A stretch of 64,000 nucleotides of DNA from NCBI RefSeq assembly GCF_900129765.1, contig NZ_FQWU01000004.1, forward strand, positions 248,001-312,000. Reading direction: 5' to 3'. The position numbers and the translations under genes were made by a program. This stretch comes from Massilia sp. CF038 (GTDB lineage Bacteria > Pseudomonadota > Gammaproteobacteria > Burkholderiales > Burkholderiaceae_D). Positions 2,319 to 4,805 of this stretch are shown here, in pieces. The notes below the pieces were generated by a model. It worked only from the letters and a program-made list of their open reading frames with translations, was not told where the DNA came from and did not search any database. Positions within the stretch are counted from its first letter, which is position 1, and the number at the start of each line of letters is the position of its first letter.

Positions 2319-3635
2319 CTATGGCCAGACAATGGCGGCGCACAGATTCCGCAGGCGTTCCGCACGCGCCGGGTTCACCATGTGAACGTGGGCGACGCGC
2401 CCCTCCAGATAGGCCCGGAAGTTGTCATGCCCGATGCGGTTCTGCGAGGCGGGGCCGTGACGCACGCAGTTGGTCAGCGTCGCCTTCAGCGCATCGTATT
2501 CGTCGCGCGCGATATTCGGACGGCAGTTCACAACAATCCCCGTCACTTGCTGGCGTACGCCCGCACCCATCATGCGCGTCTTGCGGGTGTTGACCCGAAA
2601 GCCCTCTCCCAGCGCAATGGCGGCCACGCGGACGTGGAAGCGGTCAAGCGCGCGCGCCAGTTGCGCATCGCCCGAGAACACCAGGTCGTCGGCATAACGG
2701 CTGTACACGGCACCCATTGACGCTGCCAGCGCCTGCAGACGGATATCGAGGCGGAAGGCACAGGCATTGGCCAGCGCAGGCGAACAAGGCGAGCCTTGCG
2801 GCAGATGCGGTGATCGCAGGGCCTGCCGCTCTGCCCAGCTGATGTCCACTGCGGCGGCGGCACCCGCCGGTGTGCGGTTCACGCAGAGCCGGGCCAGTGC
2901 GCCCGCCACGCTCTGCGAGTAACCGAGCTTGACGAACATCGCATGTACGCGCGAAGCGGGAATGCTCGGAAAAAAATCCTTCAGATCCATGCGGATCACT
3001 ACCCGTTGGTTCACATGCAGCGCCGCGTGCGTGACGCACGAATGACCACGCCGAAAACCGTGTGCGGCAGAATGGGCCGGCACCAGGTCAAGAATCTCGC
3101 GCAGGATCTTTTGCTGCATCGCGCGCAGGCGCTGCTTGGGGATCTCGATCAGGCGCCAGCCACCGCTGCGCTTGGGCAGCCAGCGATAATGGTAGTGCTG
3201 CAGGCGCGATGTTGCGTCATGTGTGAGGCGGAATTGATCGGCGAACCAGCCCAACTCATCAGGCCTGACCGTAAGCCAGCGCGCCAGGTCGCCGACGGTA
3301 GGAATAGCGGGCAACGCCAGCGCCACCAGCCATGCCGGCTGCTCGGGTACCACGGGTAGCGATATGCAGTAACGGCGGATCTGAGGCGGCGCCTTGCCAT
3401 TCTCCCAGGCGCCAAGAAAATGTTCATCGTCGAGAATGATGGCCGCCAGCTCCATCCTGCTAAAAGAATGAAAGTGTTCGCCGGTGCGTACATGAATCGC
3501 TTCACACAAGGGCGGGACCCACTTGTGCTCTACCTCGAATGCTCGGGCGGCGCTCCCAATGAGTGCCGCCACCCCAGCGGCACCAGCGAGCATGGTGTCG
3601 GCCAATGCCAATGCAACTGAATGGGCTGGGATCAT
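2319..3635 (-). CDS. Retron-type reverse transcriptase with long N-terminal extension
   Basis: A 438-residue reverse transcriptase. Motifs read in order: KRSGGWRLIEIPK (about 155-167); HGFRRGHS followed by HAALH (203-207, close to the retron NAxxH motif); catalytic motif A RMDLKDFFPSI with D217; PQGSPCSPALAN (279-290); the catalytic YADD box (314-317); and VTGIVVN (364-370), the VTG triplet typical of retron enzymes. It should copy part of its own upstream RNA into multicopy single-stranded DNA. About 110 residues precede the polymerase, longer than in compact retron RTs and reminiscent of myxobacterial ones; their function is not recognisable. ATG 3635 is chosen because it lies just after the a2 repeat; an in-frame GTG at 3698 sits inside a predicted RNA hairpin. 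No accessory gene follows on this strand: the next gene is convergent. Confidence 0.9.
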   Translation of the reverse strand: MIPAHSVALALADTMLAGAAGVAALIGSAARAFEVEHKWVPPLCEAIHVRTGEHFHSFSRMELAAIILDDEHFLGAWENGKAPPQIRRYCISLPVVPEQPAWLVALALPAIPTVGDLARWLTVRPDELGWFADQFRLTHDATSRLQHYHYRWLPKRSGGWRLIEIPKQRLRAMQQKILREILDLVPAHSAAHGFRRGHSCVTHAALHVNQRVVIRMDLKDFFPSIPASRVHAMFVKLGYSQSVAGALARLCVNRTPAGAAAAVDISWAERQALRSPHLPQGSPCSPALANACAFRLDIRLQALAASMGAVYSRYADDLVFSGDAQLARALDRFHVRVAAIALGEGFRVNTRKTRMMGAGVRQQVTGIVVNCRPNIARDEYDALKATLTNCVRHGPASQNRIGHDNFRAYLEGRVAHVHMVNPARAERLRNLCAAIVWP

Positions 3636-3646
3636 GAATAGCAGGG

Positions 3647-3803
3647 GCGGAGAGCCTTCAACGTACTTGTGACGCTCGAGTGCCCGTGTGCGAAGCACAC
3701 AGAATCTCTTGCGATGAAATGCAAAACATTAAAAATTTCATGGGGTAACCCCATGGAGACTCGCCTTTTACAAGACGAAAGCCTGTCTGCTTGAAGGATC
3801 CGC
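3647..3803 (-). ncRNA. Retron msr-msd non-coding RNA (predicted)
   Basis: The minus-strand segment between promoter and RT start has the architecture of a retron RNA. The 5' repeat a1 (GCGGATCCTTCAA, 3803-3791) pairs with the 3' repeat a2 (TTGAAGGCTCTCCGC, 3661-3647): 7 bp, a small 1x3 internal loop, then 5 bp. Directly after a1 comes AGC, whose G at 3790 is the expected 2'-5' branching guanosine. Then follow a short msr-like hairpin (AGAC/GTCT, 3788-3773, 8-nt loop), a stem GAGTCTC/GAGATTC (3762-3756 with 3708-3702) enclosing a perfect 7-bp hairpin CATGGGG/CCCCATG (3755-3739), and a hairpin GTGTGC/GCACAC (3700-3686). The predicted transcription start coincides with the first base of a1. The exact msr/msd boundary was not determined. 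Confidence 0.82.
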
Positions 3804-3810
3804 TGCGCGC

Positions 3811-3839
3811 AGAATAAGGCACGACGACCAAAAGGTCAA
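3811..3839 (-). promoter_or_regulatory. Sigma-70 promoter of the retron
   Basis: On the minus strand, TTGACC (3839-3834) is separated by exactly 17 bp from TATTCT (3816-3811). The expected start point, 6-8 bp further on, falls at about 3803-3804, the first base of the a1 repeat of the retron RNA. The promoter begins 13 bp after the stop codon of the small membrane protein gene, so the retron can be transcribed on its own but could also receive read-through. Confidence 0.8.
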
Positions 3840-3852
3840 CGCGGCAATAGTG

Positions 3853-4008
3853 TCAGCAGCTGAACTCGACGATGCCGGTGCCGATCCCGACGATCAGGCC
3901 GATGACCAACCCGGTGCCTACTCCCATCCCGGCGAGAATCAATTTTCCCGCGATCTGGCATACGGTTGCGACCGCGGTCGAAGACGTGTTTGCGAGCGGC
4001 GAATTCAT
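3853..4008 (-). CDS. 51-residue glycine-rich membrane protein
   Basis: A short open frame beginning ATG at 4008 and ending TGA 3855-3853. Its start overlaps the stop of the rhodanese-like gene by 4 bp (ATGA), strong evidence that it is translated by coupling. After a polar N-terminus (MNSPLANTSSTAVATVCQ) comes a hydrophobic stretch from about residue 19 to 47 with glycines at short regular intervals (GMGVGTGLVIGLIVGIGTG), a glycine-zipper type transmembrane helix, then EFSC at the C-terminus. No family is recognised. It lies immediately before the retron promoter on the same strand, so a link with the retron is possible but unproven. Confidence 0.65.
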   Translation of the reverse strand: MNSPLANTSSTAVATVCQIAGKLILAGMGVGTGLVIGLIVGIGTGIVEFSC

Positions 4009-4592
4009 TTTTCCTCCTGCTGCAGCGATGCACGCTGCGCGACCCGCTGGCCGATTGCGCCCGCCAGATCATCGGCCGACTGGCCGCTTGCCTTGACCGC
4101 CGCCAGAATCTGCGCCGCCTCAGGTCCGCCCGAGCGCGACGCTTCCGCCAGACTCCAGGTACGGGCAGCTCGGCGCCCGCTGCGGCAGTACAACAGGATC
4201 GGCCGCGGGCTGTTGGCCAGGGCCTGGCCCAGGGCCTCGACGGCTGTATCAGGGATCGCGCCATGTGGCACTGGCACATACACGAAGGCCAGTTGATTGG
4301 CGGCGGCGACCTTGCGCATGGTGGCGGCGTCGGGCTGTCCTACTGCTTCGCCGTCGGGACGCAGGTCGATGACGGTAGCGTAGCCGCTTTGGCGCACGGA
4401 CTTGAGTTGGCGGACGGTCAGTTGCTCGGAAACCGAGATGGATTCAGTCAGGGGATGCAGCCCGGCGCGGGTGCGCAGTGCATCGGTCGCCGCTGCGGCG
4501 CTCCACTTTTCGTAGCCCGCGCTAATGAGGATGTACAGCATTCCGGCGACCAGCGCGCCGAAAAATACTCTCCCGTTGGTGAAATGCTTCAT
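4005..4592 (-). CDS. Membrane-anchored rhodanese/phosphatase-like (DUF442/TIGR01244) protein
   Basis: A 195-residue protein starting MKHFTNGRVFF. Residues about 9-28 form one transmembrane helix (FFGALVAGMLYILISAGYE), so the remainder is probably anchored to the inner membrane. The soluble part contains SEQLTVRQLKSVRQSGYATVIDLRPDGE and YCRSGRRAARTW. These are the hallmarks of the beta-lactamase-hydrolase-like DUF442 family, with the cysteine loop CRSGRR resembling rhodanese and dual-specificity phosphatase active sites. Stand-alone members are linked to sulfide/sulfur metabolism; the substrate here is unknown. A longer upstream frame exists, but it runs through a region of palindromic repeat, so the internal ATG is preferred. 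Confidence 0.75.
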   Translation of the reverse strand: MKHFTNGRVFFGALVAGMLYILISAGYEKWSAAAATDALRTRAGLHPLTESISVSEQLTVRQLKSVRQSGYATVIDLRPDGEAVGQPDAATMRKVAAANQLAFVYVPVPHGAIPDTAVEALGQALANSPRPILLYCRSGRRAARTWSLAEASRSGGPEAAQILAAVKASGQSADDLAGAIGQRVAQRASLQQEEK

Positions 4593-4714
4593 GGGTTTTT
4601 GCTTTGCTGTTGTAATTGAACAGTGTATCGACGAAGGGACTTCCCGCAATCGACACAGCCCAAAGGCGCAGGCGGCGCTACTGACGGTAGCTTGAACAGC
4701 TACTTTCAATAACC

Positions 4715-4805
4715 ACATCGTGCTCGCGAAGGCGGGCACCCATGCCACATATGCTCAATGATGACTCAAACTGGCTATGGGTCCCCGCCTGCGCGAGGAC
4801 GATGT
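4715..4805. repeat. Intergenic palindromic repeat (REP/BIME-like), copy 1
   Basis: Long imperfect inverted repeat. The left arm starts ACATCGTGCTCGCGAAGGCG and the right arm ends CGCCTGCGCGAGGACGATGT, with a variable centre of about 25-30 bp. Same family as the copies at 8902, 14592, 31454, 31641, 31828 and 37433. It lies between the rhodanese-like gene and the pntB terminator. Confidence 0.85.

What the first reader, a model, noticed from the sequence alone, without database searches (positions are those of the whole stretch)
2319..3839. A complete, apparently undescribed retron with readable promoter, a1/a2 repeats and RT
Seen: a near-consensus promoter (TTGACC-17-TATTCT) whose start point falls on the first base of a repeat (GCGGATCCTTCAA) that pairs with TTGAAGGCTCTCCGC 130 nt later. 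The AGC after a1 gives a candidate branching G (3790), three well-formed hairpins lie between the repeats, and the RT ATG is 11 nt past a2. The enzyme has YADD, an NAxxH-like HAALH and the VTG triplet of retron RTs. Known: retrons make RNA-linked DNA and act in anti-phage defence. Inference: this element produces msDNA in this host.
Basis: partly seen in the sequence, partly recalled or inferred. Interest (0 to 1): 0.88.

Follow-up and report, generated by a model that had tools for sequence, protein, structure and literature searches.

The report
Retron without a partner gene
This is very probably a genuine retron, a small bacterial element that makes short DNA joined to RNA; it belongs to a conserved family that seems to consist only of the RNA and one enzyme with an unusual front part, with no toxin partner found beside it.

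Summary
The finding holds. Window 2319-3839 (minus strand) carries promoter, a1, branch-G context, three hairpins, a2 and a 438-aa reverse transcriptase (RT) at the stated places. In 29 aligned homologous loci the RNA structure pairs in 97.7% of cells and 22 of 46 pairs show both-sided changes, against 8.6 in shuffles; with divergent loci added, 35 of 46, including 12 of 14 a1/a2 pairs. A TTG-17-TAnnnT promoter lies at the same aligned place in 28 of 29. The RT groups apart from group II intron RTs; its best solved-structure matches are retron RTs.

No neighbour gene cluster recurs within 1.5 kb in more than 5 of 31 family loci. RT residues 1-98 form a helical domain that does not align with type XIII RTs and has no clear match.

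The RT group is not unknown: PADLOC's RT_other and RT_outgroup models score 478 and 453 bits. The RNA matches no Rfam family. msDNA production and function are untested. I rate it a new member of a known kind.

The parts
3834..3839 (-). -35 hexamer TTGACC of the retron promoter
   Evidence: exact position; TTG at the same aligned place in 28 of 29 loci, TTGAC in 21 of 29
3811..3816 (-). -10 hexamer TATTCT (17-nt spacer)
   Evidence: TTG with TANNNT at exactly 17-nt spacing in 28 of 29 loci; 0.0 expected per 29 by letter shuffling
3791..3803 (-). a1 repeat (GCGGATCCTTCAA)
   Evidence: pairs with a2; with divergent homologues 12 of the 14 modelled a1/a2 pairs have both-sided changes (two of the 14 lie outside the 13-mer and do not pair in the window)
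3790..3790 (-). Candidate branching (priming) guanosine, context AAGC (26 of 29) or AAGT (3 of 29)
   Evidence: Invariant G next to a1 in 29 of 29 sequences; the chemistry is inferred
3758..3787 (-). msr hairpin 1
   Evidence: Helices 3 and 4: 6 of 10 pairs with both-sided changes
3737..3757 (-). msr hairpin 2, GGGGNUACCCC core
   Evidence: Helix 5: 99.6% of cells paired; the same core stands in the Burkholderia cenocepacia locus L105 and, read by eye, in the Woeseiaceae locus L007
3673..3712 (-). msd hairpin (helices 6 and 7)
   Evidence: 7 of 13 pairs with both-sided changes
3662..3736 (-). Predicted msd, the stretch copied into DNA, starting opposite 3662 next to a2 and running towards hairpin 2 (about 65-75 nt)
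   Evidence: Inference from the general retron layout; start and end not tested
3647..3661 (-). a2 repeat (TTGAAGG-CTC-TCCGC)
2319..3635 (-). Retron reverse transcriptase, 438 aa, YADD and VTG, region X HAALH
3342..3635 (-). RT N-terminal domain (residues 1-98; helices 4-16, 22-33, 40-57, 60-69, 71-77)
   Evidence: AlphaFold2 mean pLDDT 68 for the full RT, 82 for residues 1-104 alone; the profile alignment with type XIII RTs starts at residue 99

Best explanation
A functional-looking retron, probably one transcript: promoter, msr-msd RNA (about 157 nt), then an RT with its own N-terminal helical domain. By the retron scheme the RT binds the folded RNA, uses the 2'-OH of G3790 as primer and copies the hairpin region next to a2 into a DNA of about 65-75 nt joined to the RNA. 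Shown here: anatomy, covariation, conserved promoter, RT affinity, no recurrent partner gene found. Inferred: the single transcript, msDNA synthesis, and that the RT-msDNA complex with its N-terminal domain is the whole functional unit (built-in partner, or docking onto a host protein). I put about 0.55 on anti-phage or stress defence as its role, as for other retrons, with the rest on a non-defence or lost role.
For: RNA covariation; promoter kept in 28 of 29 loci; the RNA model finds 20 of 195 sampled family genomes, and all 20 handles also carry the RT; one RNA match in the own genome, beside the RT, which is also the only RVT_1 match there; RT motifs; tree; retron RTs as best matches in PDB by sequence and by fold. 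No neighbour cluster within 1.5 kb recurs in more than 5 of 31 family loci, whereas among 8 loci of the longer, type XIII-like RT one cluster (the SWIM_XIII protein in L073) recurs in 7 within 1.5 kb and another (the WGR_XIII protein in L073) in 8 within 3 kb. In G231 the upstream neighbour of the window's retron (a TIGR01244-like gene) and the GGDEF gene after it are present with no RT between, and the sequence there, read by eye, also encodes a relative of the window's 51-aa ORF, so that ORF seems to belong to the locus and not to the retron.
Against: No product was measured. Region X has His instead of Asn throughout the family (27 of 27). The RNA of the window itself scores lower (129 bits, rank 32 of 38) than most members of the model. 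Some copies elsewhere are broken: G028 has a TGA in frame, G356 is split in two frames, G111 keeps only the second half, and in G125 about 3.3 kb lies between RNA and RT, so the element is dispensable in places. My ORF caller took ORFs of 60 aa or more, so a smaller partner could be missed.
Confidence: 0.85

Rival explanations
1. Self-contained defence retron: the RT's N-terminal domain is itself the effector, held in check by the msDNA and released on phage attack, as in retrons whose effector is fused to the RT.
For: The domain is kept in all 27 aligned family RTs, and tblastn extends into it in L099 (from residue 11) and L105 (from residue 2); no separate partner recurs; the region shared with type XIII RTs starts only at residue 99.
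Against: No enzyme fold or family match: Pfam none, Foldseek best E 2.7; it is a short helical bundle without an evident catalytic site. In L007 the match covers only residues 94-437, though its ORF has a front part of similar length.
Confidence: 0.3
2. Orphan or domesticated retron: it makes msDNA but no dedicated effector exists; the role is regulatory or mild, as long suspected for vertically inherited myxobacterial retrons.
For: Genus-coherent RT tree (g40, g32 and g28 each on one branch; g1 not), same locus in G222 and the window, no recurrent accessory gene, N-terminal extension as described for myxococcal RTs (PMC6868368, passages).
Against: Patchy: 10 of 17 genomes of the genus have an RT match, and neighbourhoods differ between genera, which fits gain and loss.
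Confidence: 0.35
3. The effector is encoded elsewhere in the genome, for example by type XIII partners, and works in trans.
For: 19 of 40 genomes with the 438-aa RT also hold a longer relative matched only over its RT part; eight loci of such longer RTs share two neighbour clusters, of which the L073 members are type XIII proteins.
Against: The other 21 of 40, the window's genome among them, show no such second RT; that genome has no SWIM_XIII match; the RNA model finds no good match in the 8 type XIII-like loci (best 12.6 bits).
Confidence: 0.07
4. Not a retron: RT of a group II intron, DGR or DRT next to a chance hairpin.
For: Weak cross-matches to group II RT (54 bits) and Drt2 (35 bits), far under their cut-offs of 300 and 390.
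Against: Covarying a1/a2 RNA, tree (group II rows split off with 100/100 support), best structures are retron RTs. DGR RTs were not put in the tree.
Confidence: 0.02

Closest known systems
PADLOC RT_other (PDLC02949) and RT_outgroup (PDLC03740) retron RTs
   Same: Best family matches: 478 and 453 bits; RT_other is matched from residue 4 on
   Different: PADLOC gives no RNA, effector or function for them in what I saw; the RNA described here is extra
Retron type XIII (RT_XIII with HEAT/WGR and SWIM proteins)
   Same: Nearest RT type with partners: 332 bits, 38% identity over 323 columns in profile comparison
   Different: No such recurrent genes beside it; N-terminus does not align; the RNA model does not match the 8 type XIII-like loci
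Myxococcal retrons Mx162, Mx65, Sa163, Ne144
   Same: RT with extended N-terminus, and likely vertical inheritance for Mx162 and Sa163 (PMC6868368, passages); Mx65 also deviates at the Asn of NAXXH
   Different: Priming G context there CAGC or GAGC, here AAGC or AAGT; homology of the N-termini could not be tested, no myxobacterial sequence was in reach
Retron-Eco1 (Ec86)
   Same: Best solved-structure match by sequence and fold; YADD and VTG visible in the alignment
   Different: Shorter RT (chains of 320-349 residues) and an effector (named in the title of 7v9x)

Membership tests
Retron | RT with YADD and the VTG triplet of region Y | tested here: met
   Both in the window's RT; YADD in 27 of 27 and VTG in 23 of 27 family rows; definitions from PMC6868368 passages
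Retron | Region X NAXXH (Asn replaced in 2 of 16 validated retrons) | tested here: inconclusive
   HAALH in the window and HAxxH in 27 of 27 family rows, while 7 of 7 type XIII-like relatives have NAxxH
Retron | Inverted repeats a1/a2 around a structured RNA, supported by covariation | tested here: met
Retron | Conserved G at the inner end of a1 | tested here: met
   Invariant in 29 of 29 sequences
Retron | RT groups with retron RTs and not with group II introns | tested here: met
   Tree of 27 rows, group II split off 100/100; HMM scores. No DGR row was included; the order among retron types is poorly resolved
Retron | Makes branched RNA-linked DNA | not testable with these tools
   Needs nucleic-acid extraction or expression
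Retron type XIII | Adjacent HEAT/WGR and SWIM genes | tested here: not met
   No recurrent partner in 31 loci; no SWIM_XIII match in the own genome
Retron Ec67 or St85 families (NCBIfam) | Score over the curated cut-off | tested here: not met
   193.1 of 450 and 190.3 of 235 bits
Tripartite defence retron | RT, RNA and an effector gene or fused known effector domain | tested here: not met
   No recurrent neighbour, no PADLOC match for the two upstream ORFs (for 4005-4748, for the 51-aa ORF), no Pfam match for the N-terminus. ORFs under 60 aa were not compared
PADLOC RT_other / RT_outgroup | Best-scoring profiles of the library | tested here: met
   these profiles carry no cut-off in that output
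Group II intron RT | TIGR04416 over cut-off | tested here: not met
   54.1 of 300 bits

The most novel reading that the evidence does not exclude
A minimal, self-contained retron type: RNA plus one protein, in which a so far unmatched N-terminal helical domain of the RT is the effector or the docking site for a host protein, giving a two-part defence unit without a toxin gene.
Probability: 0.3. Interest if true: 0.6.

Novelty: new member of a known kind. Interest (0 to 1): 0.4.

Why it matters
It gives a well-bounded retron RNA family with strong covariation, without a match in Rfam 15, tied to an RT group that PADLOC lists only as 'other' and 'outgroup'. Because nothing but RNA and RT was found to recur, it makes a clean test of whether a retron can act without a separate effector, and of what an N-terminal extension of a retron RT does. 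The compact 1.5-kb cassette could also serve as a source of DNA templates in soil betaproteobacteria.

Full report
Observation. Folded alone, the RNA is far more stable than its shuffles (z -4.74, 0 of 200). Rfam has no family for it at the gathering score over the window and only a chance-level match with lax limits over 3600-3850.

Relatives. A search of 392 genomes of the same family with the RT found a match at E <= 1e-40 in 50. By the match rows, 40 of these hold the 438-aa type (G111 only its second half, G356 in two pieces) and 10 hold only a longer RT (open frames of 633-717 aa over all rows of that type) aligned from about residue 100 on. In the genus itself 10 of 17 genomes have a match. 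Named relatives are Massilia aquatica, M. atriviolacea, M. rubra, M. frigida, Collimonas sp. OK412, a Burkholderiaceae MAG and a Woeseiaceae MAG (7 loci); the contigs of the four Massilia species coincide in length with contigs of genomes labelled same genus, from which I infer a Massilia-like host. In 274 genomes of the class the PADLOC RT_other model matched 7 at E <= 1e-60, the window's own included; of the other six only G514 has the RNA. A Burkholderia cenocepacia replicon holds a 47-50% identical RT with the RNA before it.

RNA. The upstream stretches of 30 loci were taken; L010 was dropped because its sequence before the RT did not align (its RNA was later found about 3.3 kb away in the larger locus L062). 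The other 29, all distinct, were aligned. RNAalifold proposed 46 pairs. Counting those pairs gave 97.7% standard cells, 22 pairs and 76 cells with both-sided changes, against shuffled means of 91.9%, 8.6 and 17.1, with 0 of 500 shuffles as high; the number of further pair types was not unusual (39 against 37.3; 117 of 500 shuffles as high). The a1/a2 helices have 6 of 14 pairs with both-sided changes there. The structure was derived from the same alignment and related rows inflate such counts, so I added divergent loci. A covariance model matched 10 of 23 held sources at E <= 1e-8, among them the window itself and L007 from a gammaproteobacterial MAG; it gave no such match in the 8 type XIII-like loci (best 12.6 bits) nor in the five class-level loci L080-L084. 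On 38 sequences aligned to the model (29 of them its own), 35 of 46 pairs have both-sided changes, 12 of 14 in a1/a2, and further pair types now exceed all 500 shuffles; this alignment is fitted to the structure. In L105, read directly, TGGGTCAA faces TTGACTCA. In genome-wide searches the model hit 20 of 195 sampled family genomes, each of which also carries the RT, and 2 of 299 genomes of the phylum sample, both of the family; both searches used stricter filters that lose weak matches.

Promoter. TTG with TANNNT at a 17-nt spacer stands at the same aligned place in 28 of 29 loci, TTGAC in 21; letter shuffles of the same stretches expect 0.0. Most of the rows are close relatives.

Enzyme. Pfam gives RVT_1 only. 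PADLOC ranks RT_other (478 bits) and RT_outgroup (453) over RT_XIII (332). NCBIfam gives retron and other RT families all under their cut-offs. PDB sequence and fold searches put retron RTs first. YADD is in 27 of 27 family rows, VTG in 23 of 27, and region X reads HAxxH in 27 of 27. The full-length model is of middling confidence (mean pLDDT 68). In a tree of 27 rows the ten RTs of this family form one group with 100/100 support and the four group II rows split off with 100/100; the retron types among themselves are poorly resolved (10 of 24 inner branches open), and long branches are flagged by the tool. In that tree the rows labelled XIII were so named by me; PADLOC scored the RTs of L073 and L101 only. 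Residues 1-98 are a helical domain that a local profile comparison with type XIII-like RTs leaves unaligned and that has no clear family or fold match.

Surroundings. ORFs of 60 aa or more were called and clustered in 31 family loci and 8 loci of the longer RT. Within 1.5 kb of the RT no cluster recurs in more than 5 of 31 family loci, and within 3 kb in no more than 6, the latter probably joined by a shared GGDEF domain. In the 8 other loci one cluster recurs in 7 within 1.5 kb and another in 8 within 3 kb; their members in L073 are the SWIM_XIII and WGR_XIII proteins. In the window the retron lies between a TIGR01244-like gene followed by a 51-aa ORF without a Pfam or PADLOC match, and a convergent GGDEF gene. 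In G222 the RT sits at the same locus, between a gene I take for pntB (name recalled) and GGDEF. In G231 the TIGR01244-like gene and the GGDEF gene lie about 570 bp apart without an RT, which bounds the cassette to roughly 2319-3852. The RT tree is coherent by genus for three of four genera tested. Together this suggests inheritance within genera with occasional loss or relocation; transfer was not tested.

Mechanism. From the known scheme (PMC8989520 and PMC6868368, passages seen): folded RNA bounded by a1/a2, RT recognition, priming from the conserved guanosine, copying of the msd. I expect a DNA of about 65-75 nt. Whether it defends against phages, and through what, is open: the missing partner is the main point of interest, with the N-terminal domain as the chief suspect.

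Literature. No paper in the library holds retron, msDNA and Massilia together. The listings show no paper on this retron family by title, but several were capped far below the number of papers found, and most subscription papers, Mestre 2020 included, are not held. The 2019 review used putative betaproteobacterial retron RTs in its tree (passage), so betaproteobacterial retron RTs as such are not new.

Noticed in passing
window 4711-4800: A REP-like element of about 86 bp at the far end of the upstream gene; one search lists further copies on several contigs of the own genome (24 matches to the query that holds it, itself included) and in related genomes.
   Followed up: no
L069-L076: The longer RT paralogues share two neighbour clusters that in L073 are WGR_XIII and SWIM_XIII proteins; 19 of 40 genomes with the window's retron type also hold such a longer RT.
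   Followed up: partly
L100 37-7826: A 1555-aa HEAT-repeat protein, a 607-aa SWIM_XIII protein and a 432-aa RT in closely packed genes; it looks like a short-RT variant of type XIII.
   Followed up: partly
L101 7071-8591: An RT that scores best with RT_XIII (618 bits) but whose three neighbours examined with Pfam are not type XIII proteins.
   Followed up: no
L062 5103-8430: In G125 (contig as in M. rubra) about 3.3 kb, with a gene that looks like a metal-transporting P-type ATPase, lies between the retron RNA and its RT.
   Followed up: partly
L067, L066, L020: Decayed copies: half an RT with a poor RNA match (G111), an RT split in two frames beside an intact-looking RNA (G356), an in-frame TGA (G028).
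   Followed up: no
L098 10380-10690: At the window's retron site, G231 has a small ORF, read by eye, that looks like a coiled-coil membrane protein.
   Followed up: no
L105 4709-6233: RT with matching RNA on a 1.1-Mb replicon of Burkholderia cenocepacia, near an H-NS-like and a SLOG-domain gene; the record's gene table in this collection is nearly empty.
   Followed up: partly
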